Notes under the pieces: generated by a model
Seen by the model: only the letters and a program-made list of their open reading frames with translations
Told to the model about the DNA's origin: nothing
Databases searched by the model: none
Virus record (IMG/VR): IMGVR_UViG_3300028802_000007
Span: 62,001-126,000 of that record
Reading direction: 5' to 3' (one strand)
DNA: 64,000 bases
Source: a virus
Part shown: positions 30,224 to 46,505 of the stretch, one piece after another
Numbering within the stretch: position 1 is the stretch's first letter
How the letters are laid out: every line of letters begins with the position of its first letter
Program-made: the position numbers and the translations under genes

Positions 30224-30583
30224 ATGGGCATCACCTACGAAGAGGTGGACAAGTACTGGGACTCGACCATCGCCCGCCTCAAGGCGGAGTTCCCGGCGGA
30301 GTGGAGCATCACCGGCTACAAGGGCCATGGCACCCGCGACGGCGTGGCCTGGGTCGCCAAGCTGCGCCGCAACGGCAAGGTCGTCGGCTCTCTCGAAGAC
30401 TCCGGTGTCGGTGGGTCGGTCTTCATCGACTTCTGGACGAAGGTCGGCAACTCCATCGACTACGGCCACAACAGCGAGGACGCCAAGGCGTGGGCCGCTG
30501 CGATCGCAGCCGCGCTGCCCGACGAGAAGATCGAGCCTGACCAGATGGTCATCGAGGCCCTCCTCCAGCGAGCCGGCAAGTGA
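30224..30583 (+). CDS. small early protein, unknown
   Basis: 119 residues, AAGGAGG upstream. Helix-strand pattern (EEVDKYWDSTIARLKAEFP, GVAWVAKLRRNGKVVGSL, SVFIDFWTKVG). Stop overlaps the methyltransferase GTG. Unknown. Confidence 0.75.
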   Translation: MGITYEEVDKYWDSTIARLKAEFPAEWSITGYKGHGTRDGVAWVAKLRRNGKVVGSLEDSGVGGSVFIDFWTKVGNSIDYGHNSEDAKAWAAAIAAALPDEKIEPDQMVIEALLQRAGK

Positions 30584-31272
30584 AGGTTCTCGACCTCTAC
30601 TCCGGTCTGGGCGGCTGGTCACAGCCAGCCCTCGACGCCGGTCACGAGGTGGTCAGGGTCGAGTGGGACAAGCGCCTCGCGGCTGAGGTGCCCAACACCA
30701 TTCAGGCCGACATCACCGAACTGACGGCGACCGATCTCCTCAACATGTGCGACGGCAAGCCCGACCTGATCCTCGCCTCGCCTCCCTGCGAGTCGTGGTC
30801 GGTCATGGTCCTGTCACGCAACTGGTTCCCCGACTACACACCCAAGAGCCAGCGTGCGGTCGAGGCCATCCTCATGGTCAGCCACACACTGGAGTTGATC
30901 CACCAGCTCGACCCTGCCTTCTGGGTCATGGAGAACCCACGCGGCATGATGCGGAAGCATCCGGTGGTCGCCGGGCTGGAGCGTCGGACCATCACCTACT
31001 GCCACTACGGCGAGCAGCGCATGAAGCCGACCGATCTGTGGTCGGACCGCTGGCCCGCCAGCCTCACCCTCGCACCGGCGTGCAAGAACGGCGACCCCTG
31101 TCACGTCCGCGCACCTCGCGGCTCGATGACCGGGACCCAGGGCATGAAGGGCGACCGCAACGGCTACTGGACGAAGTCCCTCATCCCGTACCCGCTGGCA
31201 CGCGACGTCACCGACGCCGTCTGCCGCGACCTAGAGGCGGGCCACGTCGGCTCCAACCTCACGCTCTGGTAA
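30580..31272 (+). CDS. DNA cytosine methyltransferase-like protein
   Basis: 230 residues from GTG at 30580. MKVLDLYSGLGGWSQPALDA is motif I (SAM binding), ILASPPCESWSVM motif IV with the catalytic Cys, and FWVMENPRGMM motif VI of C5-cytosine methyltransferases. The target-recognition part is short. Second of three such genes here; likely protects phage DNA from host restriction. Confidence 0.8.
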   Translation: MKVLDLYSGLGGWSQPALDAGHEVVRVEWDKRLAAEVPNTIQADITELTATDLLNMCDGKPDLILASPPCESWSVMVLSRNWFPDYTPKSQRAVEAILMVSHTLELIHQLDPAFWVMENPRGMMRKHPVVAGLERRTITYCHYGEQRMKPTDLWSDRWPASLTLAPACKNGDPCHVRAPRGSMTGTQGMKGDRNGYWTKSLIPYPLARDVTDAVCRDLEAGHVGSNLTLW

Positions 31273-31283
31273 GGAGGTCAACC

Positions 31284-31529
31284 ATGGCTATCACGATGCG
31301 CTCGTCTGATCGCGCTGAGGTCATCCGCGAGATGGCCCGGGAGCTCCTCGCGAAGGCGGACTTACTGGACGGCACCTCGCCGTGCGTCTGCGGACACCTC
31401 CGCCAGAACCACGATCCGGCGGGCTGGAACGAGGGCTGGTGCAGCGGTGCCCAGACCACGCGGCGACCCAAGAACCAGATCATCGCCGCCGACGGCGACT
31501 GCAAGTGCGAGGAGTTCGAGGCATGGTGA
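31284..31529 (+). CDS. small Cys/His protein
   Basis: 81 residues with AAGGAGGTCAACC. Helical start, then CVCGHLRQNHDPAGWNEGWC and CKCEEFEAW, a probable zinc site with a common phage C-x-C-x-H pattern. Unknown role. Confidence 0.75.
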   Translation: MAITMRSSDRAEVIREMARELLAKADLLDGTSPCVCGHLRQNHDPAGWNEGWCSGAQTTRRPKNQIIAADGDCKCEEFEAW

Positions 31530-31744
31530 GAGAGCGAACACTGGCTGAGTACCGCGAAGCGATGGCCGCAGACAGCAACGCCTCGTTCTACGAGGAGCGC
31601 CGCCTCAACTTCCTGATCCTCGCCCTGCCTGACGGCCACCTTGGCACGGGGGAGATTGTCAGCGTCTCCTTCCGCGAGGGCATCGACTTCATCGATGAGG
31701 ACTGGCCTGAGTTCGGCAACTTCCTCATCTTGGAGACGGCATGA
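31523..31744 (+). CDS. small acidic protein, unknown
   Basis: 73 residues; start ATG 31523 overlaps the previous stop (GTG 31526 possible). Acidic, mixed helix/strand. Ends in ATGA overlap. Unknown. Confidence 0.7.
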   Translation: MVRERTLAEYREAMAADSNASFYEERRLNFLILALPDGHLGTGEIVSVSFREGIDFIDEDWPEFGNFLILETA

Positions 31745-32007
31745 AGACCAACGGACCGAAACTCGTCGGTGACTGGCGTCGCCGTCGCGGCTCCAAGACC
31801 GACGCCCACCTGTTCGACGGATCGGGGCACCACCCGTTCGACCAGCGACCGATGTGCGGCAAGGCCATCCGCCACATGAGCACCGAACCGGCGACGCTCT
31901 GGACGGGCACGCCCATCAGCCGGTCAGGCTCGTTCTGGGCGCTGCCCTGCACGGAGTGCCTCGTTCAGGCCATCACCCGCCAGCGCAAGGAGGTCAACCA
32001 TGCCTGA
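31741..32007 (+). CDS. small Cys/His early protein
   Basis: 88 residues. HLFDGSGHHPFDQRPMCGKAIRH and LPCTECLVQAI suggest a zinc site of His/Cys ligands. Its end overlaps the next gene by 8 bp, through the shared AAGGAGGTCAACC. Unknown. Confidence 0.7.
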   Translation: MKTNGPKLVGDWRRRRGSKTDAHLFDGSGHHPFDQRPMCGKAIRHMSTEPATLWTGTPISRSGSFWALPCTECLVQAITRQRKEVNHA

Positions 32008-32158
32008 GACACGACGCATCAAGGCCACCTACTACCCGGTGCGCCAAGCACACCCACGCCGGACCGACTGGGCCAGGGTCGCCCTGTTCATCGCTGGCGG
32101 CATCGTCGCCGCGATCGCGGTCTGGGCCTTCGTCGCCCTGTTCCTCGTGACGTTCTGA
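32000..32158 (+). CDS. 52-residue single-pass membrane protein
   Basis: AAGGAGGTCAACC upstream of ATG 32000. Basic N-terminus then one membrane helix (VALFIAGGIVAAIAVWAFVA). Stop overlaps the next ATG (TGATG). Confidence 0.7.
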   Translation: MPETRRIKATYYPVRQAHPRRTDWARVALFIAGGIVAAIAVWAFVALFLVTF

Positions 32159-32307
32159 TGTGCGGCAGGGAGGACGACCCGTCCATGACTGACGTCTGCA
32201 CCCGCTGCGGGCATCCCGCCACCGACCATGGCGGCGGCCCCGGCGAGGGCGAGTATCCCGATCTGCCGTGCGACTGCGGCTGCGACCGCTGGACGGAGGA
32301 GGGCTGA
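32158..32307 (+). CDS. 49-residue zinc-rich mini-protein
   Basis: Coupled at both ends by TGATG. VCTRCGHPATDH and CDCGCDRW contain six Cys and two His. Probably a small zinc-binding adaptor. Confidence 0.65.
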   Translation: MCGREDDPSMTDVCTRCGHPATDHGGGPGEGEYPDLPCDCGCDRWTEEG

Positions 32308-32711
32308 TGCCAGCCATCGACATCCCGGCGGAGATGCCCCAGCTCAAGGGCCTGTTCGTGGGCGGCTGCGTCGCTCGAGGAGACGGCTCCTCGTTCCGGG
32401 CTCGAGCTCACGCCCACACCTTGCCCAGCGACTACAAGGGCTGGGTCTGCGTCAGGGCAGCACATCGCGTGCTCACGCCCTCAGGCCGGCCCTCCCGTCT
32501 GATGTGGCACGAGTACGCCCACATCACCACCGGTCACGGACATGACGCCGTCTGGCGCGAGCGGATCACGGAGTACGGCTTCCCGGCGGAGGCCCACCGG
32601 TACATCAGGAAGAAGAGGCCGCCGCTCGTCTGGTATTGGTATGACCCCGCCACTGGCGAGCGCCAGACGGGTGCCCACCGCGAGATGGTCGCAGCACTGA
32701 GAGGAAGGTAG
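32307..32711 (+). CDS. HExxH-motif putative zinc metallopeptidase
   Basis: 134 residues. LMWHEYAHITTGHGHD matches the HExxH zinc-protease signature with a further His, as in ImmA/SprT-like peptidases, but the protein is small and no other subfamily motif is visible. It could cleave a host repressor or be a non-catalytic zinc protein. Catalytic role is an inference. Confidence 0.55.
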   Translation: MPAIDIPAEMPQLKGLFVGGCVARGDGSSFRARAHAHTLPSDYKGWVCVRAAHRVLTPSGRPSRLMWHEYAHITTGHGHDAVWRERITEYGFPAEAHRYIRKKRPPLVWYWYDPATGERQTGAHREMVAALRGR

Positions 32712-32713
32712 AC

Positions 32714-32899
32714 ATGGACATCACCGCGCTCATCATCGAGCTGGTCCAGGTTCGCGAGGTCTTCGGTGACCTCGAGGTCATGGTGGCACTGGAGCAGACA
32801 GGCGACGAACCTGTGACCGATGTCATCGTGCTGCCCGCCGACAAGCAGTTCCGCCGCGTCGTCAAGATCGCGGCGCTGGGAAAGCGTGACAACGCCTAG
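32714..32899 (+). CDS. 61-residue protein, unknown
   Basis: GAGGAAGG upstream. Strand-rich (DLEVMVALEQTGDEPVTDV) with a basic end. Resembles many short phage proteins; unknown function. Confidence 0.7.
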   Translation: MDITALIIELVQVREVFGDLEVMVALEQTGDEPVTDVIVLPADKQFRRVVKIAALGKRDNA

Positions 32900-32937
32900 G
32901 CCACGGGCCTATACTCACCAAAGGAGGTCAACACAGA

Positions 32938-33204
32938 GTGGACGAGAAGCCGGATCAACCACCCCCGAAGCGGTTCTGGAGGGTCACCTTCTGGACTGCC
33001 GACGGGTCTGAGCACCGCCGCTACATCCGCTGCCCGTACGCATCGCCTGACTCGCTCGTCGGCGTGTCGGCCAGGCTGGGCGAACTGATGTGGGACGGCA
33101 TCATCACCAGCTACCGCCTCAGCCCTGTCCCATCGGCCCGTGTCGCGGTCGTCCGTGACCGGTCCGTCCGCTGGAGCGAGGTCGAAGCGACCCTCGCCGC
33201 CTAG
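32938..33204 (+). CDS. 88-residue protein, unknown
   Basis: GTG start with AAGGAGGTCAACA upstream. Proline-rich N-terminus, then WRVTFWTADGSEHRRYI, strand-rich. Unknown. Confidence 0.7.
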   Translation: MDEKPDQPPPKRFWRVTFWTADGSEHRRYIRCPYASPDSLVGVSARLGELMWDGIITSYRLSPVPSARVAVVRDRSVRWSEVEATLAA

Positions 33205-33212
33205 GAGACACC

Positions 33213-33359
33213 ATGCTTATCGCACTGTTCATCACCGGCATCCTGATGTACATCATCGGCTCACGTCTCGACAAGGGCGAACGCCGCAAGCGCGAACGTG
33301 AGATCGACCTCAAGTACGGCCACACCGCCGACGGTCGCCCCCTCGAGCGACGCCGATGA
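33213..33359 (+). CDS. 48-residue membrane-anchored basic peptide
   Basis: TAGGAG upstream of ATG 33213. One N-terminal membrane segment (MLIALFITGILMYIIG) followed by a strongly charged tail (DKGERRKREREIDLKYG). ATGA overlap with the next gene. Confidence 0.7.
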   Translation: MLIALFITGILMYIIGSRLDKGERRKREREIDLKYGHTADGRPLERRR

Positions 33360-33754
33360 AACGATCCTACTCAACCATGGCCCGTGAACTGGGCATCAAG
33401 CTGTGCGGCGGTGTCCGGCCTACCGGACACTACTGCGAGCTCGACCACCAGCGATGGGGCGCGTCTGAGCCGGGCCTCGTCCACATGGCCGACGTGCGCG
33501 TCACCAAGGCCGGCCTCGCCCGGTTCTTGGGTCACGCCGCGATCGCGCTCGACCCGAGCATCAACGACGAGGTCCCGTGGCGACGCGTCTACCGTCGGCA
33601 GATCGCCTCTCGCGATCTGGCCCGTCGGCTGCATGTCCGCATGCCCGGTCGCGAGTTCTACGACTTCGACCGGTCGTTCGTCCTCGCCAGTGTGGCGTCC
33701 ATCCCGAACGGCGAGCCTCTTCGGAAGCAAGCCTTCGACTGGGCCCGGCGGTGA
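33356..33754 (+). CDS. early protein, unknown
   Basis: 132 residues. Basic, with DHQRWG, VTKAGLARFLGHAAI and RQIASRDLARRLHVR. Could bind nucleic acid by charge. No family recognised. Confidence 0.7.
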   Translation: MKRSYSTMARELGIKLCGGVRPTGHYCELDHQRWGASEPGLVHMADVRVTKAGLARFLGHAAIALDPSINDEVPWRRVYRRQIASRDLARRLHVRMPGREFYDFDRSFVLASVASIPNGEPLRKQAFDWARR

Positions 33755-33757
33755 GTG

Positions 33758-34957
33758 ATGCGATCCGCCGACGTGTTCCTCATCGCCGGGGCGCGGCTGC
33801 GGCTACCGATGGTGCCTCATGTCCGCCACGGGGCTGGCCTGATCAACTATCGGGAAGGCGCACGCATCGTCCTGAACTCGTACGTCGAGCCGGGGCCGTG
33901 GTGGGAAGTTGAGTGCGTCACCCCGGACCGTCCGCTGGAGGGCCAACGCATCGAGCATGACTGGCCCGGGTTCATCTACGGCCCGGCAACGGGCCTCAAG
34001 CGAGCAGAGGAGCAGCCATGCCGGACGACCATCCTGATCGTGTCTGGCTCTGCACCAAGTGCTGGAAGGAGGGCCGCAAACCGAAGTTCATCATCCTGGA
34101 TGGGACCTACGGGTCAGCACCCTGCCGCCATTGCGGCACCAAGCGCATCTTCCACGAGGAGCTCCGCCATGACATCGATACTGAACAGCCACGAGTACAC
34201 GGCACCGCGCAGCAATCCTGAAGTCGCCCGGATCATGCAGGAGAAGGGCGTGGGCCGGAAGCGGGCCTACAACATCCTCCGACAGGCCAAGGCGGCCCAG
34301 TTCACCGTCGAGGTTCCCCAGACGCAGCGGGCACAGGTGCTCACCTCGCTGGTGGAACACGCCGGACAGTCCAAGAACGCGGCCCAGCTACTGGAGCAAC
34401 TCCACGACGACGGCGTGAACATCGACATGCACGACGTGGTCAAGACGCTCTGGTCGCTCCAGAAGACCAACTTCGTCCAGTTCCGCGAGCGCAACAACCC
34501 GCCCAGCCTGTACGCCATCAAGGTCACCGACCAGGGCCTCGCGGCCTACGGCGACATGAAGGAACGGCTGGCGACCGACGCGGGAACCATCACGGTGCCT
34601 GAGACACCGCTCATCACCGAAGCCCGGGCGTCTGTGGCGCTCGACCACGATCCGAAGATGGAGACGCAGTCCGTCGAGGTCGAGACCATCCTGCCCGGCA
34701 CGCCGGAGTGGGACGAGTCCGAAGTCGCCCTCGAGGCGCAGCGCCGCGCCGAGTACACCGGCATCGACCTGTCGGACTTCCCGCTGATGCGGTCCATCCG
34801 CGATCGGGCCCGCAAGGAGTCCGTCCTCGCCAAGGCTGCCGCCCTCCTCGAGGACGCTGGCGAAGACGACATGGCTCTCGACGTCATGAACCTCACCCAG
34901 TTCAACGCCCTCGAGCTCGAGGTCAAGCAGATGCTCCAGAGCATCGGAGAGGTCTAG
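33758..34957 (+). CDS. 399-residue continuous frame: N-terminal domain plus DNA-binding-like domain (possibly two genes)
   Basis: The frame from ATG 33758 runs without a stop to 34957. Its first 87 residues look real, residues about 88-137 look like the wrong-frame shadow of the zinc-ribbon gene at 34018, and from residue 138 (ATG 34170) it becomes a convincing helical protein. So either a fused 399-residue protein is made, or the N-terminal gene has lost its stop. The C-terminal part has MQEKGVGRKRAYNILRQAKA and winged-helix-like SLVEHAGQSKNAAQLLEQLH. Confidence 0.45.
   Translation: MRSADVFLIAGARLRLPMVPHVRHGAGLINYREGARIVLNSYVEPGPWWEVECVTPDRPLEGQRIEHDWPGFIYGPATGLKRAEEQPCRTTILIVSGSAPSAGRRAANRSSSSWMGPTGQHPAAIAAPSASSTRSSAMTSILNSHEYTAPRSNPEVARIMQEKGVGRKRAYNILRQAKAAQFTVEVPQTQRAQVLTSLVEHAGQSKNAAQLLEQLHDDGVNIDMHDVVKTLWSLQKTNFVQFRERNNPPSLYAIKVTDQGLAAYGDMKERLATDAGTITVPETPLITEARASVALDHDPKMETQSVEVETILPGTPEWDESEVALEAQRRAEYTGIDLSDFPLMRSIRDRARKESVLAKAAALLEDAGEDDMALDVMNLTQFNALELEVKQMLQSIGEV
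34018..34221 (+). CDS. 67-residue zinc-ribbon protein nested in another frame
   Basis: GAGGAGC upstream of ATG 34018. LCTKCWKEGRKPKF and CRHCGTKRIF form a clean four-Cys zinc ribbon. It lies inside the 33758-34957 frame, and its last 17 residues overlap the 34170 start. Clear coding signal for the first 45 residues. Confidence 0.65.
   Translation: MPDDHPDRVWLCTKCWKEGRKPKFIILDGTYGSAPCRHCGTKRIFHEELRHDIDTEQPRVHGTAQQS
34170..34957 (+). CDS. winged-helix/coiled-coil early protein (internal start of the 33758 frame)
   Basis: 262 residues if translated from ATG 34170 (GAGGAGC upstream). HTH-like N-terminal part, a winged-helix-like middle (DVVKTLWSLQKTNFVQFRE) and an acidic C-terminal helix. Probably a DNA-binding regulator or replication accessory; unproven. 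Confidence 0.6.
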
Positions 34958-35227
34958 ATGACAGTCACCCTGAAGATCGAGGTCACGTCGCCTCTGACCG
35001 ACGACGACCGCGACCTCCTCGCCGGCCTCGCCGTGATGACGGTCGCCATCGCCAACCGCCAGCTCAACATGGAAGAGCAGCCGCCTGAGCCGACGGAGTG
35101 CGGCGAGCTCGAGTACGCCGATGAGCCGTCTGGCCCTCAGGCCACCGGCAGGATCTGCGACAAGGACCCGCACCACGTCGGTCGCCACCGCTTTCGTCAG
35201 GCCCCCGTCCTAGCGATGGTGAACTGA
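34958..35227 (+). CDS. small protein, unknown
   Basis: 89 residues starting right after the previous stop. N-terminal strand/helix (VTLKIEVTSPLTDDDRDLLA), then CGELEYADEPSG and CDKDPHHVGRH, possible metal ligands. ATG overlaps with the next gene. Confidence 0.7.
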   Translation: MTVTLKIEVTSPLTDDDRDLLAGLAVMTVAIANRQLNMEEQPPEPTECGELEYADEPSGPQATGRICDKDPHHVGRHRFRQAPVLAMVN

Positions 35228-41666: not shown

Positions 41667-41948
41667 ATGGCAGAGATTGTGATCCGCATCCAGGTGCCCG
41701 ACGGCACCAACGTCCGCGTCGATCAGGGCGGTGGCTCCGACAAGCCGTTCGTCCAGCGACCGGCCCCGCCTGAGCCCAACGATGGTGGCTGCCCCACCCA
41801 CGAGGTGGCGTGGAAGCTGGTCCCGGCGGGCGTGAGCAAGAAGACCGGGCGTCAGTACAACGCCTTCTGGGCGTGCCCGGAGCGCGGCTGCGACGAGAAG
41901 CCGTCGTGGGACGATAGCGCCCCCGGTGGTGGCGACCTTCCCTTCTGA
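41667..41948 (+). CDS. small zinc-ribbon protein, unknown
   Basis: 93 residues, AGGAGGTCAACC upstream. Strand N-terminus (MAEIVIRIQVPDG), Pro-rich linker, then CPTHEVAWKL...FWACPERGCDE, a C/H-C-C zinc ribbon like that of topoisomerase- or ssDNA-linked proteins. Overlaps the methyltransferase start. Confidence 0.75.
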   Translation: MAEIVIRIQVPDGTNVRVDQGGGSDKPFVQRPAPPEPNDGGCPTHEVAWKLVPAGVSKKTGRQYNAFWACPERGCDEKPSWDDSAPGGGDLPF

Positions 41949-43686
41949 GGTGGACCTGACCCATGCCTCCTTCTTCAGCGGAGTGGGAGGCGTTGACCTT
42001 GGGCTTGAGCGAGCTGGATGGAGAACCGTCTCCACCAGCGAAGTCGATCCCTACGCCAACGCCGTCCTCGCCCACCACTGGCCGGACGTCCCGAACCTCG
42101 GAGACATCGTTGCTCTCGCCCACGCTGAGGGTGGGGCCCAAGAACAACCGGCAGGGCAGCACGTCAGCGATGCAGCCGGTCATCCTGACTGGTGGGACGC
42201 CACCCTCTGGTCAGGAGGGTTCCCCTGTCAGGATCTCTCCGTTGCGGGCAAGCGCCGTGGCTTCGCGGGCGATCGCAGCAGCCTCGCCTTCGCCTTCCTG
42301 GACCTCGTTGGAGTTCACCGACCTCGAGCCATCCTTCTCGAGAACGTCCCCGGTCTCCTCTCCAGTCATGGGGGCCGAGACCTTGGGGCTCTCCTCGGTG
42401 CGATGGTCGAACTCGGGTACGGCGTGGCGTGGCGCGAGCTCGACGCTAAGCACTTCGGCGTGCCCCAGCGCCGACGACGGATCTTCCTCCTTGGTCTGCG
42501 AAGCGAGGCCGACGACCCTGACGGACGTGTTGCAGCCGACCGCGCCGCTGCGGTTCTCGCTGTCGGCACGCGCTGCGACAGGCATCCTGCGCCGGGCTGG
42601 AAGAAGGGGACGGTCCCTGCCAGCGGACCTCGAAGAGGCGCTTCACTCGTTGGGGGAGGAAACTCCGCCCCCCAGTCCCAGCGCGTCTTTGGCACCGACG
42701 GTGAGTCCCCTGCGCTCAGCGTCCAGAACCGCTACGGAGGACCCCAAGCCCCAGCCGTCCACGTCGGCAGCCTCCAAGTCGGAAGCGGACCCGGAGGTGG
42801 CTGGCGTGTCGGAGCCGACGAGGCAGGGGCCGGGCACGTCATCGTTGGTCCGCCGTCTGACGCCGGTGGAGTGCGAGAGGCTGATGGGGTGGCCGGACGG
42901 CTGGACGATCGCGCCGGGGTGGTTAGAGCGTTCACGAAAAGCCGCCGCGCCCAGACCGACCACGACCACGAGACGTGGGTCGAAGGCGACGCCACCCCCA
43001 CCCTGAATGGCTTCGACTCGTCCGCCGTCCGGGCGACCACCGTCATCAGCCAGTCCCTCGACCAGAAGAACGGCGGTGTCGATGACAACGAGGCCCAGTC
43101 TGGCCTAGCCATGGGCGGTGGCATCATGGACGATCCGCTCCTGCCCACTGGGCTCGACTCCAACCGCTATCGGTGCTGCGGCAATGGTGTCGTCGCCCCG
43201 GTGGCGGAGTGGATCGGGGCCAGGCTCGCCGCCTACCTGAACCAGAGCCCGTGGGTGGTCGTGCCCAAGGGCAACAAGGCCGCCGTGGCTCTGGCCGACG
43301 GGCACTACAGCCGCCGCAAGGTGGGCAGCCCGCAGTTCATGCCACCCGGCCAGACGCTGGTCCTCATCACGCCCGACGACAAGGCCGTCTTCGGCTGGTG
43401 GCGTCCGCACCCTGACTCTGGCATCAAGCAGATGAACGGCCTCGATGGCTGGACATGCACCATCTTCCGCAACACCGGACCGCAGCGGTCGAGCGACCTG
43501 ATCCTCGCCGCCGAGAAGGAGCTCCTCGAGAGGTACGACGTGGGCCCGGACGGCCTGCTGACCTACGTCTGGGACAAGAAGGTCGAGTCAGTCAACCCGG
43601 GCTACTGCTTCAAGGTCGCCGGGTGGAAGCGCATCGGGCGATCGCAGGACGACCGCAAGACCTTGCTCCAGAAGAGGCCAACATGA
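41926..43686 (+). CDS. C5-cytosine DNA methyltransferase fused to a GNAT/Mom-like domain
   Basis: 586 residues from GTG at 41926. FFSGVGGVDLGLERAG is motif I, WSGGFPCQDLSVAGKR motif IV with the catalytic Cys, AILLENVPGLLS motif VI, FGVPQRRRRIFLLG motif VIII and RYRCCGNGVVAPV motif X. However RRLTPVECERLMGWPDGW, normally between VIII and X, is encoded at 42851-42904 in a different reading frame, so the middle is rearranged or frameshifted. The last ~150 residues (ADGHYSRRKVGSPQFM onward) form a GNAT-type domain like phage Mom-related proteins. Together they may make a modified base. Confidence 0.75.
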   Translation: MVATFPSEVDLTHASFFSGVGGVDLGLERAGWRTVSTSEVDPYANAVLAHHWPDVPNLGDIVALAHAEGGAQEQPAGQHVSDAAGHPDWWDATLWSGGFPCQDLSVAGKRRGFAGDRSSLAFAFLDLVGVHRPRAILLENVPGLLSSHGGRDLGALLGAMVELGYGVAWRELDAKHFGVPQRRRRIFLLGLRSEADDPDGRVAADRAAAVLAVGTRCDRHPAPGWKKGTVPASGPRRGASLVGGGNSAPQSQRVFGTDGESPALSVQNRYGGPQAPAVHVGSLQVGSGPGGGWRVGADEAGAGHVIVGPPSDAGGVREADGVAGRLDDRAGVVRAFTKSRRAQTDHDHETWVEGDATPTLNGFDSSAVRATTVISQSLDQKNGGVDDNEAQSGLAMGGGIMDDPLLPTGLDSNRYRCCGNGVVAPVAEWIGARLAAYLNQSPWVVVPKGNKAAVALADGHYSRRKVGSPQFMPPGQTLVLITPDDKAVFGWWRPHPDSGIKQMNGLDGWTCTIFRNTGPQRSSDLILAAEKELLERYDVGPDGLLTYVWDKKVESVNPGYCFKVAGWKRIGRSQDDRKTLLQKRPT

Positions 43687-43847
43687 CCACCACCGTCGCC
43701 ACTCCAGACCACGATCCGCGACCTATCCGTATGCTCGTCCTCGAGGCCGCCATCCGGCGGGCCATCGAGATGCTGGACGGTGAGGGAGATGTCGAGGTAC
43801 GCGAGCTTCTCGAGGAGGCGCTCCGTGAGGGTAGTCATCGCGGGTAG
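43683..43847 (+). CDS. 54-residue helical protein
   Basis: ATGA overlap with the methyltransferase. Helical, acidic (AAIRRAIEMLDGEGDVEVRE, LLEEALREG). Overlaps the next gene's GTG start. Unknown. Confidence 0.65.
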   Translation: MTTTVATPDHDPRPIRMLVLEAAIRRAIEMLDGEGDVEVRELLEEALREGSHRG

Positions 43848-44286
43848 CCGTGCCCTGCCACGCGGCCAGGCTCCGCGCCTGCTGGCTCGCTTCCTCGCCA
43901 AGTTCGATGACGGTGACAGCGTCCTGATCCGCACGCCCAAGATGGGTGAGCCCGGCCCCTTCGAGCGCGACGTCATCAAGCTGTGCGAGCTCTTCCAAGT
44001 CGAGGTCGAGACGTTCACGCCGGAGCCCACGCCGCAGACGCCGGGCCGTGGCTCCGTCTTCCTCCGCGACATCGAGATGGTTGACAAGGCGGACCTCGTC
44101 CTCCTGTTCTTCACGCCGACGGAGGCTGTCGAGGGCTACTCAGGCACGGCCCACATGATGGAGAAGGCGCTCGATGCCGCACGTCCGGTCTACGCCTACA
44201 CCGTGTCGGAGGCCGGCGAGGTGAACCGGCTGGGCGAGTACGACCCTGACGATCTGTTCAGCCACAAAGTTCCGTCAGTACCTTGA
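43825..44286 (+). CDS. SLOG/Rossmann-fold nucleotide-binding-like protein
   Basis: 153 residues from GTG at 43825. VRVVIAGSRALPRGQAP is the N-terminal strand-loop of SLOG-type (DprA/TIR-related) folds, then ADLVLLFFTPTEAVEGYSG and AHMMEKALDAARPVYAY match the acidic-site region of nucleoside 2-deoxyribosyltransferase-like proteins. It could process nucleotides. It ends just at the promoter of the RNA array. Confidence 0.55.
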   Translation: MRVVIAGSRALPRGQAPRLLARFLAKFDDGDSVLIRTPKMGEPGPFERDVIKLCELFQVEVETFTPEPTPQTPGRGSVFLRDIEMVDKADLVLLFFTPTEAVEGYSGTAHMMEKALDAARPVYAYTVSEAGEVNRLGEYDPDDLFSHKVPSVP

Positions 44287-44312
44287 CATCATGGTGTCAT
44301 GCCACTTATTGT
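44283..44312 (+). promoter_or_regulatory. promoter of the Y-RNA array
   Basis: TTGACA (44283-44288), 18-bp spacer, TATTGT (44307-44312); transcription would begin about 44319, the first base of module 1. The -35 overlaps the stop codon of the previous gene. Confidence 0.6.
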
Positions 44313-44318
44313 TCGCGG

Positions 44319-44389
44319 TCTGCGGTGCGTAGCCACGGGGTTACTTCTCTGGAAAGTAATACCTCGAACGGCGATCTTGTTCTCGCAGA
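44319..44389 (+). ncRNA. Y RNA-like module 1
   Basis: Terminal stem TCTGC/GCAGA, conserved GGTGCGTAG after the 5' strand and TTGTTCTC before the 3' strand. The inner part is one hairpin (GGTTACTT / AAGTAATACC). About 71 nt, the size of a plain Y RNA. No open reading frame. Confidence 0.75.
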
Positions 44390-44399
44390 TAACTGAATA

Positions 44400-44540
44400 G
44401 GTGACGGTGCGTAGGCCGGGGATACTTCGTTAATCTTTGGGTCGTGGGTTCGAGTCCCACCCCGGGCCCGCAAGGGCCTGGGTAGCTCAGTTGGTAGAGC
44501 AAAAGACAAGAGACACCTCGTCCACTCAGTCCTCGTCGCC
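44400..44540 (+). ncRNA. Y RNA-like module 2 (YrlA-type, permuted tRNA domain)
   Basis: Terminal stem GGTGAC/GTCGCC with GGTGCGTAG and CCTC. The inner 73 nt (44434-44506) order the parts of a tRNA circularly: anticodon-stem strand TCTTT, T-arm GTGGGTTCGAGTCCCAC (44444-44460), 3' acceptor CCCGGGCCC, GCAA loop, 5' acceptor GGGCCTGGG, D-arm GCTCAGTTGGTAGAGC (44485-44500), then AAAGA pairing with TCTTT. Matches the known tRNA-like domain of bacterial YrlA RNAs. Confidence 0.85.
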
Positions 44541-44549
44541 ACTAGACGT

Positions 44550-44669
44550 GCTGATGGTGCGTATGGGTAGGGGCTACTTCGTTGCTTGAAGTCTCAGTTC
44601 GACTCTGACGGAGAGCTTGCTCTCTGTGGCAGTGGTGCCAACACCTCAACCCGACCTGTTCTCATCGGC
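44550..44669 (+). ncRNA. Y RNA-like module 3 (degenerate tRNA-like)
   Basis: Terminal stem GCTGAT/ATCGGC (one G-U pair) with GGTGCGTAT and TGTTCTC. Inside: T-arm TCAGTTCGACTCTGA (44594-44608), hairpin CGGAGAG-CTTG-CTCTCTG (44609-44626) and D-arm-like GGCAGTGGTGCC (44628-44639), the same permuted order as module 2 with different sequence. Confidence 0.75.
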
Positions 44670-44681
44670 GCTACATCAACG

Positions 44682-44790
44682 TCAGCGGTGCGTAGACCGG
44701 GGTTCCTTCGTTGGAGAGAGCCCACCGGCTTGCTGGTGGGTGGGGGTTCGAGTCCCCCAAGTAAAACCTTGATCGCCTAGTCCTCGCTGA
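44682..44790 (+). ncRNA. Y RNA-like module 4 (T-arm type)
   Basis: Terminal stem TCAGC/GCTGA with GGTGCGTAG and AGTCCTC. Inside: hairpin CCCACCGG-CTTG-CTGGTGGG (44721-44740), then a perfect T-arm GGGGGTTCGAGTCCCCC (44742-44758). The order differs from modules 2 and 3. Confidence 0.75.
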
Positions 44791-44800
44791 TACATCCGTT

Positions 44801-44919
44801 CCAGTGGTGCGTAGAAGAGGGGTACTTCGAGTGCCAGGCCCCGCAAGGGGTCAGCCGGACACTCAACCGGCAACCCGCCGCAAGGCGGTTCGTTCCCTTC
44901 CTCGACTTGTTCTCACTGG
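44801..44919 (+). ncRNA. Y RNA-like module 5 (GNRA-hairpin type)
   Basis: Terminal stem CCAGT/ACTGG with GGTGCGTAG and TTGTTCTC. Inside are a long GAGTG...CACTC stem with CCCC-GCAA-GGGG, and CCGCC-GCAA-GGCGG. No T-loop. Ends 20 nt before the Ro60 start codon. Confidence 0.75.
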
Positions 44920-44939
44920 TACACCGACAGGAGCTTCGA

Positions 44940-46505
44940 ATGGTCAAGCTCGCCGCCCGCACGAAGCGGGCTCCCAAGGCACCGGTCACGTCCACCAAGG
45001 GCCGGAAGCCGGACACCCTCACCTACAACGCAGGCGCAGGGTTCTCCCGTGAAGCCAAGTCGGAGCTGTTCCTCCTGTCCGTGACCAACATGGTCAGCGA
45101 GGACACCTTCTACGAGCGCGGCAAGAACCGTGACAAGCGGTTCGTGGACCTCATCCGTCAGGTCGCCCTCGAAGATCCCGACTGGGTCGCCCGGCTTGTG
45201 CCCTACCTCCGCGACACGATGAACATGCGATCCGCATCCATCGTGATGGCGGCTGAGCTGGTGCATGCCAAGCTGACCCGTCCCGTCGGTCCCGGCACGA
45301 TCAAGAACCGCGACATCATTGCGTCCGCAATCAAGCGGGCGGATGAGCCGGCGGAGATGATCGGCTACTGGATGTCCGAGTGGGGCAAGGCCCTGCCGCA
45401 GCCGGTGAAGCGCGGCATCGCTGACGCGGTCGTGCGCGTGTACAACGAGCGGTCCCTGATCAAGTACGACGGTGGCGACAAGGCCATCCGCTTCGGTGAT
45501 GTCATCGACCTCACCCACCCGGAGGCCAAGGCCCCGTGGCAGTCGGCTCTGTTCAAGTACGCCATCGATGACCGCCACAAGCGGGACATCCCGATCTTGG
45601 AGCGTGCTGAACTCGGCCTGGTCTGGGCCAACGAGGGTGCGATGTCGCTCGACACCGACGCCTTCCGCGCTGCCTTCACGCCTGAGTTCGTGGCGGCGGC
45701 TGGCCTGACGTGGGAGCAGGCGTCGTCCAAGTACGGCAAGCTCGACGCGAAGTTCTGGGAGGCGATGATCCCCTCGATGGGCATCTTCGCCATCGTGCGG
45801 AACATCCGCAACTTCGAGGACGCCGAGATCAGCGAGGCCGCCGCCGACCTGGTCCGGGCCAAGCTCAAGGACGAGGAGACCATCCGCAAGTCGCGGATGT
45901 TCCCGCTCCGGTTCATGGCCGCGTACACCGCGACCAAGAGCCTGACGTTCGCCCGCGAGCTCGAGGCCGCGATCGACCTCGCCACCTCCAACGTGCCTGC
46001 CCTGACGGGCAAGACGCTGGTGATGGTGGACATCTCCGGCTCCATGGACGCGGCGCTGTCCGCCAAGTCGGACGTCAAGCGGCTTGCCGTGGCGTCCATC
46101 TTCGGTGCGGCTCTCGCGATCCGGGCGGAGAAGGCCGACCTCGTGGCGTTCTCGGACACCACGGCGGTCATCCCGGTCCGCAAGACGGACTCGGTGCTGC
46201 GGACGGTGGCTGCCCTCGTGCAGTCCCTGCCGCACGGTGGCACCCAGACGTGGCAGGCGGTGCAGCGCACCTACACCGACCACGACCGGATTGTCATCGT
46301 GACCGACGAGCAGGCCAACGCAGGCTACGCGGGGACGACCCTCCCTGAGGACGCCCGCGTCTACACCTTCAACGTGGCTGGCTACCGTGCCGGTCACGGC
46401 CCGTCGGGCAAGAAGGGGTGGTACACGTTCGGTGGGCTGACGGATGCGGGCTTCACCGCCATCGAGCTCCTCGAGCGAGGGAACGACCAGACCTGGCCGT
46501 TCTGA
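44940..46505 (+). CDS. rsr: Ro60/Rsr RNA-binding protein (TROVE + vWA)
   Basis: 521 residues from ATG 44940 (CAGGAG upstream; a TTG further upstream is not used because it lies inside module 5). VTNMVSEDTFYERGKNRDKRF and DTMNMRSASIVMAAELVHAK begin the TROVE HEAT-repeat ring (about residues 20-350). MVDISGSMDAAL is the MIDAS metal site (DxSxS, about residue 362), and IVIVTDEQAN follows in the vWA domain. Ro60 binds Y RNAs and misfolded or end-bearing RNAs. Adjacent to five Y-like modules. Confidence 0.93.
   Translation: MVKLAARTKRAPKAPVTSTKGRKPDTLTYNAGAGFSREAKSELFLLSVTNMVSEDTFYERGKNRDKRFVDLIRQVALEDPDWVARLVPYLRDTMNMRSASIVMAAELVHAKLTRPVGPGTIKNRDIIASAIKRADEPAEMIGYWMSEWGKALPQPVKRGIADAVVRVYNERSLIKYDGGDKAIRFGDVIDLTHPEAKAPWQSALFKYAIDDRHKRDIPILERAELGLVWANEGAMSLDTDAFRAAFTPEFVAAAGLTWEQASSKYGKLDAKFWEAMIPSMGIFAIVRNIRNFEDAEISEAAADLVRAKLKDEETIRKSRMFPLRFMAAYTATKSLTFARELEAAIDLATSNVPALTGKTLVMVDISGSMDAALSAKSDVKRLAVASIFGAALAIRAEKADLVAFSDTTAVIPVRKTDSVLRTVAALVQSLPHGGTQTWQAVQRTYTDHDRIVIVTDEQANAGYAGTTLPEDARVYTFNVAGYRAGHGPSGKKGWYTFGGLTDAGFTAIELLERGNDQTWPF

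What the first reader, a model, noticed from the sequence alone, without database searches (positions are those of the whole stretch)
44283..46505. Five tandem Y-RNA-like modules directly upstream of a phage Ro60 gene
Five modules (44319, 44400, 44550, 44682, 44801) share GGTGCGTA(G/T), then GGGG and TACTTC-like bases on the 5' side, and GTYCTC on the 3' side, each closed by a different but complementary stem (TCTGC/GCAGA, GGTGAC/GTCGCC, GCTGAT/ATCGGC, TCAGC/GCTGA, CCAGT/ACTGG). That is covariation seen directly in the sequence. They end 20 nt before a TROVE-vWA protein. Known bacterial Rsr genes usually sit beside one or two Y RNAs; five with different inner parts would be an unusually diversified Ro60 guide set. 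A promoter (TTGACA-18-TATTGT) begins at the first module.
Basis: partly seen in the sequence, partly recalled or inferred. Interest (0 to 1): 0.92.

Follow-up and report, generated by a model that had tools for sequence, protein, structure and literature searches.

The report
Phage Y RNA array beside Ro60
A bacterial virus carries five small non-coding RNAs in a row just before its Ro60 gene; they share one protein-docking handle but have different heads, one of which mimics a transfer RNA, and they belong to a widespread but mostly unannotated class of viral and actinobacterial Y RNAs.

Summary
Five modules (44318-44390, 44400-44540, 44548-44671, 44681-44791, 44801-44919) precede a Ro60 (TROVE-vWA) gene at 44940. 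Each has a closing stem, a conserved internal loop (GGTGCGTA / GTYCTC), an inner stem and a TACTTC-like element. The design recurs upstream of Ro60 in Streptomyces, Gordonia and Arthrobacter phages, IMG/VR contigs and about 80 actinobacterial genomes; 91 modules show 45 different closing stems. A model built without this record finds module 1 (E 1e-8) and the sister phage's module (E 4e-12). Module 2 holds a circularly permuted tRNA (Rfam YrlA, E 1.6e-7, below the gathering score). The modules are therefore bacterial-type Y RNAs. Five is the top of the range (bacteria 1-4, phages 1-5), not unique. 'Guide set' has no support; one handle with interchangeable heads fits better. The record is two sister phages in tandem; the sister's array has four modules, with conserved handles and faster-changing heads. 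Unexpectedly, Y-RNA-like arrays with the same permuted-tRNA head also sit beside a non-TROVE gene (helical region plus TerD domain) in phages without a detectable TROVE gene, and there the handle differs. No expression or binding data exist for any of this.

The parts
44283..44312 (+). promoter-like site TTGACA-18-TATTGT ahead of the array
   Evidence: 1 found, 0.4 expected by chance; similar site in the sister phage
44318..44390 (+). Module 1, minimal Y-RNA-type module (short head); stem GTCTGCG/CGCAGAT
   Evidence: R1 model built without this record: 41.3 bits, E 1.1e-8; stem; fold z -2.4
44400..44540 (+). Module 2, tRNA-mimic Y RNA; stem GGTGACG/CGTCGCC
   Evidence: Rfam YrlA 40.8 bits, E 1.6e-7, below gathering score 69; stem; fold
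44444..44500 (+). circularly permuted tRNA head of module 2: T-arm 44444-44460, acceptor stem closed by a GCAA tetraloop 44461-44482, D-arm 44485-44500
   Evidence: read; permuted-tRNA detector, only hit in the window, 0 in shuffles; fold
44548..44671 (+). Module 3, head with T-arm-like, acceptor-like and D-arm-like hairpins, diverged from the full tRNA mimic of the sister phage; stem GTGCTGATG/CATCGGCGC
44681..44791 (+). Module 4, head = 9-bp hairpin (44721-44742) followed by a T-arm (44743-44759); stem GTCAGCG/CGCTGAT
   Evidence: (weak mascRNA and tRNA-Sec matches)
44801..44919 (+). Module 5, multi-hairpin head with two GCAA tetraloops and no tRNA-like parts; absent from the sister phage; stem CCAGTG/CACTGG
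   Evidence: (z -4.3)
44929..44933 (+). Shine-Dalgarno-like AGGAG of the Ro60 gene
   Evidence: read from the sequence
44940..46505 (+). Ro60/Rsr-like gene (521 aa, TROVE + vWA)

Best explanation
The region is a tandem array of five bacterial-type Y RNAs encoded as the leader of a phage Ro60 gene. Shown by sequence: every module has one common handle (outer stem, asymmetric internal loop GGTGCGTA/GTYCTC, inner stem, TACTTC-like element), and variants of this handle precede TROVE genes in related phages and actinobacteria. The heads differ: a minimal loop, a permuted tRNA, a diverged tRNA-like head, a hairpin plus T-arm, and a multi-hairpin head. Inferred: the handle docks each RNA on the outside of the Ro60 ring. 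The heads recruit or mimic different partners, for example an exonuclease such as PNPase as in Deinococcus, or tRNA-binding and tRNA-modifying enzymes. One Ro60 could then exchange adaptors to handle host or phage structured RNA and tRNA during infection. The modules would be released as separate RNAs by processing in the 7-9 nt spacers.
For: Ro60 identity: Pfam, PDB sequence search and fold. Same modules upstream of Ro60 in Streptomyces, Gordonia and Arthrobacter phages, IMG/VR contigs and 80 actinobacterial loci. Strong covariation. Independent model hits in the window and sister phage. YrlA match and permuted tRNA. Not coding: mismatches between sister arrays are spread over the three phases 46/52/48, against 67/58/129 in Ro60. 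Handle ends conserved and heads faster-changing between sister phages. Some relatives have an intrinsic terminator between array and Ro60, so the array can be its own transcript. Where no TROVE gene was found the handle is different but the tRNA head remains, as expected if the handle binds the protein.
Against: No transcript, processing or binding data for this phage or its close relatives. Module 2 scores below Rfam's gathering cut-off for YrlA (40.8 against 69). R1 does not find modules 2-5 at a significant level, because their long heads are not modelled; they rest on stem, motif and sister-locus evidence. In the window the array lies in the Ro60 leader without a terminator, so a cis role is not excluded. 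That heads recruit different partners is inference.
Confidence: 0.62

Rival explanations
1. Cis-acting leader: Ro60 binds the array in its own mRNA leader and regulates its own synthesis; the modules are not released as separate RNAs.
For: The array is 20 nt upstream of the Ro60 start with no terminator between.
Against: In eight other loci a strict terminator separates array and gene; in phage Kela and contig L038 an RNA ligase gene lies between; in Weasels2 the array is downstream of its gene; a permuted tRNA is not needed for autoregulation.
Confidence: 0.13
2. Decoys: the tRNA-like and other heads titrate host tRNA-targeting nucleases or tRNA-modifying enzymes, and Ro60 mainly stabilises the decoys.
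For: Permuted tRNA heads in most arrays. The RNA-repair operon paper raises competitive inhibition of an anticodon nuclease by YrlA as a possibility (PMC7790460). Phage Ro60 loci often sit in tRNA gene clusters.
Against: The anticodon arm, the usual target of such nucleases, is the missing part of the mimic. This record has no tRNA genes of its own. Minimal modules carry no tRNA-like part.
Confidence: 0.17
3. Guide set: each head base-pairs with different target RNAs that Ro60 then handles.
For: Heads differ between modules and change faster than handles.
Against: Heads are dominated by stable hairpins. No long match of a head elsewhere in the record beyond short stretches of 16-17 nt. Known Y RNAs are scaffolds or gates, not guides (own knowledge; PMC8394870).
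Confidence: 0.04
4. Decayed tRNA gene cluster or protein-coding stretch.
For: tRNA-like pieces are present, and annotators call some such modules tRNAs in relatives.
Against: ARAGORN finds no tRNA in the window; the tRNA pieces are in permuted order with a closed acceptor stem; strong covariation of the handle; stops in all frames and no codon periodicity.
Confidence: 0.02

Closest known systems
YrlA (Rfam RF02553), bacterial Y RNA with a tRNA-like domain (Salmonella; review in PMC8394870)
   Same: Permuted T-arm / closed acceptor / D-arm, preceded by a conserved AUGCUU-type element inside a stem; encoded beside Rsr/Ro60
   Different: Below Rfam gathering score (40.8 against 69). Here five modules in tandem, only one with a canonical permuted tRNA; the outer handle GGTGCGTAG/GTYCTC is not part of the Rfam model
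Y RNAs of Deinococcus radiodurans in the Rsr-Y RNA-PNPase machine (as described in PMC7790460 and PMC8394870)
   Same: Stem formed by the two ends proposed to bind Ro60; distal part as effector
   Different: No PNPase link tested here; array of five in a phage
Y RNA modules of actinobacteria and their phages (loci L009-L124 here)
   Same: Same handle, same TACTTC-like element, same position before Ro60, mostly at least one permuted tRNA per array
   Different: Usually 1-4 modules in bacteria; module 5 and module 4 heads are not canonical tRNA mimics
Proposed Y RNAs near the Rsr homologue of Listeria phage CKA15 (PMC12282133)
   Same: Phage Rsr homologue with abundant non-coding transcripts within 2 kb upstream
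   Different: The authors offer Y RNAs as one possible explanation; sequence relation not tested here

Membership tests
Ro60/Rsr (TROVE) protein | TROVE domain plus vWA domain | tested here: met
   PF05731 1.4e-14 over its cut-off, PF25045 1.1e-6 over its cut-off
Ro60/Rsr (TROVE) protein | Ro60 ring fold | tested here: met
   AlphaFold pLDDT 88.5; the top 13 Foldseek matches are all Ro60/TROVE structures, TM up to 0.76
Ro60/Rsr (TROVE) protein | binds Y RNA | not testable with these tools
   needs binding assay
bacterial Y RNA (broad class) | encoded beside Ro60 | tested here: met
   array ends 20 nt before the Ro60 start
bacterial Y RNA (broad class) | long stem formed by the 5' and 3' ends, conserved by covariation | tested here: met
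bacterial Y RNA (broad class) | at least one RNA per locus with a tRNA-like domain | tested here: met
   module 2; the rule itself is recalled from Chen et al. 2014, which is not held
bacterial Y RNA (broad class) | stable non-coding transcript bound to Ro60 | not testable with these tools
   no expression or binding data
Rfam YrlA RF02553 | score at or above the gathering cut-off (69 bits) | tested here: not met
   40.8 bits for module 2, no gathering-level match in the window; no YrlA at gathering level in 16 related phage and actinobacterial loci either
Rfam YrlA RF02553 | permuted T-arm, acceptor, D-arm order with conserved upstream element | tested here: met
   full-length model alignment 1-114 with E 1.6e-7
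functional tRNA genes | tRNA cloverleaf in normal order | tested here: not met
   ARAGORN: none in the window

The most novel reading that the evidence does not exclude
Y-RNA-type arrays are an exchangeable RNA toolkit that phages pair with more than one kind of protein. In RcXuper, RpAliso, Weasels2, XacN1, LpeD and several IMG/VR contigs, modules of a similar design (with a permuted tRNA head in RcXuper, RpAliso, Weasels2 and L130) and a different handle sit beside a protein with a helical region and a TerD domain (related to NF041916, SCO0854/MXAN_6230). The five named phages have no detectable TROVE protein. That protein would be a second, unrelated Y-RNA partner that replaces Ro60.
Probability: 0.45. 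Interest if true: 0.85.

Novelty: new variant of a known kind. Interest (0 to 1): 0.62.

Why it matters
It makes a bench question concrete: why would one Ro60 need several Y RNAs with one handle and different heads? Cultured relatives exist (Streptomyces phages BRock and GiJojo, Gordonia phage Rabbitrun), so single modules can be deleted and tested in laboratory hosts. It also shows that Rfam and standard annotation miss these RNAs and sometimes call them tRNAs, and it points to a possible second protein partner of Y RNAs, a family not previously linked to them as far as I could find.

Tried and rejected
Rfam at gathering score: nothing in the window and no YrlA in 16 related loci. ARAGORN: no tRNA in the window. 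Plain shuffles for single stems: weak alone, replaced by register and swap tests. MAFFT alignments A1 and A3 misplace the 3' stem in several rows; A4 was used for the model. Plasmid search with the array: no match. RNA ligase (PF09414) and RtcB in this record: none, so no RNA-repair operon is visible here. P0001 against the Ro60 profile: unrelated. Relatives of P0001 in viral contigs by single sequence: none; found with an alignment. Structure of the TerD-type partner: only moderate confidence (pLDDT 61.8); the TerD part is supported (3ibz, 2.6e-5), a ring is not shown. Reading the second Ro60 locus as a gene duplication was rejected: the record is two colinear sister phages. Key papers (Chen 2014; Sim and Wolin 2018; Sim 2020; Wang 2018) are not held or were not found under the identifiers tried, so how many Y RNAs per locus has been published is not verified.

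Full report
WHAT IS THERE. Five modules lie head to tail at 44318-44390, 44400-44540, 44548-44671, 44681-44791 and 44801-44919 with spacers of 9, 7, 9 and 9 nt, and end 20 nt before an ATG at 44940. The gene is a Ro60 homologue: TROVE and vWA_Ro60 in Pfam, phrog_850 RNA-binding protein, and a confident predicted fold (pLDDT 88.5) whose 13 best PDB matches are all Ro60/TROVE structures, including human Ro60, Xenopus Ro (TM 0.74) and the Ro60 of Thermus phage phiLo.

MODULE ANATOMY. Each module has an outer stem, an internal loop GGTGCGTA(G/T) against GTYCTC, an inner stem ending in GGGG, and a TACTTC-like element, followed by a head. The heads differ. Module 1 is minimal. Module 2 is a circularly permuted tRNA: T-arm GTGGG-TTCGAGT-CCCAC, then a closed acceptor stem CCCGGGCCC-GCAA-GGGCCTGGG, then D-arm GCTC-AGTTGGTA-GAGC. 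Module 3 has a T-arm-like, an acceptor-like and a D-arm-like hairpin. Module 4 has a 9-bp hairpin followed by a T-arm. Module 5 has several hairpins with two GCAA loops and no tRNA part. A strict permuted-tRNA detector finds one in the window, two in the sister phage and none in shuffles.

IS IT MORE THAN CHANCE. Single stems are not striking against plain shuffles (2-15% reach them). The fixed register and the swap test are: each 5' strand pairs fully only with its own 3' strand, and 1-2 of about 90 swaps reach a window module's own score. The finder that collected the 91 modules required a stem, so the swap test rather than the stem itself is the evidence. Across the set there are 45 different closing 5-mers. 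On 61 model-aligned modules, 81.8% of cells are paired, covariation is 0.636 against at most 0.104 in slid versions, and 262 cells have double changes against 82 in shuffles; that alignment was fitted to the structure, and two of its rows come from this record. A model built from 17 modules, none from this record, finds module 1 with E 1.1e-8 and the sister module with 4.2e-12 in the 130,935-base record; the next best match has E 0.36.

NOT CODING, NOT tRNA. Mismatches between the two sister arrays fall 46/52/48 over the three phases, against 67/58/129 in Ro60, and all six frames have stops. ARAGORN finds no tRNA in the window.

WHERE ELSE. Ro60 genes of Streptomyces, Gordonia and Arthrobacter phages and IMG/VR contigs have the same arrays. 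With one finder, 32 phage or viral loci give 0:2, 1:5, 2:5, 3:9, 4:8, 5:3 modules and 80 actinobacterial loci give 0:1, 1:18, 2:34, 3:25, 4:2; the finder misses some modules, for example one minimal module each in GiJojo, pSt2308 and Alone3, which have five by eye. So five is the top of the range, shared by several phages. Eight arrays are followed by a strict intrinsic terminator before the gene. In phage Kela and contig L038 an RNA ligase gene lies between array and Ro60 (Kela; L038 read from the sequence). This record has no RNA ligase (PF09414) or RtcB match.

TWO SISTER PHAGES IN ONE RECORD. Bases 407-56368 of the record are colinear with 75349-130935 at an offset of about 75 kb and about 67-86% identity in the aligned pieces. 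The second Ro60 locus (record 30441-35012, L002) is therefore the orthologue in a sister phage, not a duplicate. Its array has four modules matching modules 1-4 by position and closing stem; module 5 has no counterpart. Handle ends are nearly identical and heads have changed more: identity is 108/138 for module 2 but 61/124 for module 3, whose sister is a full tRNA mimic. This is direct evidence for a fixed handle with a changing head.

RELATION TO KNOWN RNAs. Rfam YrlA aligns full length to module 2 with E 1.6e-7 but below the gathering score, and no related locus reaches it either. I therefore do not file the array as Rfam YrlA, but as bacterial-type Y RNAs in the broad sense. YrlA is described as a basal stem that binds Rsr plus a tRNA-like effector domain that binds PNPase (PMC8394870). 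The rule that each species has at least one Y RNA with a tRNA-like domain, and that phages carry Y RNAs near Ro60, is recalled from Chen et al. 2014, which is not held.

HOW IT LIKELY WORKS. Shown: common handle, different heads, link to Ro60. Inferred: the handle docks on Ro60, the heads recruit or mimic partners, and the modules are released as separate RNAs. A cis-regulatory leader is possible here because no terminator separates array and gene, but it is less likely given the terminators, intervening genes and one downstream position seen in relatives.

AN UNEXPECTED EXTENSION. A DNA hit in Rhodobacter phage RcXuper led to arrays of similar modules, with permuted tRNA heads in RcXuper, RpAliso, Weasels2 and contig L130, next to a protein that is not TROVE. 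No TROVE match was found in RcXuper, RpAliso, Weasels2, XacN1 or LpeD. Rfam YrlA matches RpAliso (6.3e-8 and 9.5e-6) and Weasels2 (1.4e-3), while the Ro60-type handle model has no significant match (best about 0.05). The protein resembles NF041916 below its cut-off (SCO0854/MXAN_6230), has a TerD domain by fold (3ibz, 2.6e-5) and a helical region of uncertain fold, and is profile-unrelated to TROVE. A head kept while the handle changes with the protein is what the handle-and-head model predicts. It would also mean a second kind of Y RNA partner. This rests on adjacency in a modest number of phages and needs a binding test.

Noticed in passing
whole record G000 (window = 62001-126000); 407-56368 against 75349-130935: The record holds two related phage genomes in tandem with a period of about 75 kb: tandem prophages or a chimeric assembly.
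   Followed up: partly
L003 3456-4058; L125 1775-2463; L126 4295-4660; L127 1860-2290; L128 2030-2200; L129 1720-2070; L130 2606-3100; L131; L134 1211-1364: Y-RNA-like arrays beside a TerD-domain protein related to SCO0854/MXAN_6230; no TROVE match in the five named phages checked.
   Followed up: partly
L013 2751-2825; L017 2641-2712; L019 2745-2835; L021 2756-2829: GenBank tRNA annotations (tRNA-Arg, tRNA-Arg, tRNA-Pro, tRNA-Ser) that overlap Y RNA modules or lie inside the array; they look like tRNA-finder calls on tRNA-like heads.
   Followed up: partly
L018 2187-2939 and L038 about 2175-2930: An RNA ligase gene between the Y RNA array and Ro60 in large Streptomyces phages and a related contig (Kela PF09414 2.5e-17; L038 read from the sequence), suggesting an RNA-repair setting.
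   Followed up: partly
L012-L015, L021 and other Ro60 phage loci: Many phage Ro60 genes lie inside large tRNA gene clusters, whereas this record has no tRNA gene by ARAGORN.
   Followed up: no
window 43780-44286: ORF directly upstream of the array, weak match to nucleoside 2-deoxyribosyltransferase (0.02) and phrog_289 (1.3e-6); conserved upstream of the array in the sister phage.
   Followed up: no
window 41926-43686: C-5 cytosine DNA methylase (PF00145, 1.8e-41) two genes upstream of Ro60, also present in the sister locus.
   Followed up: no
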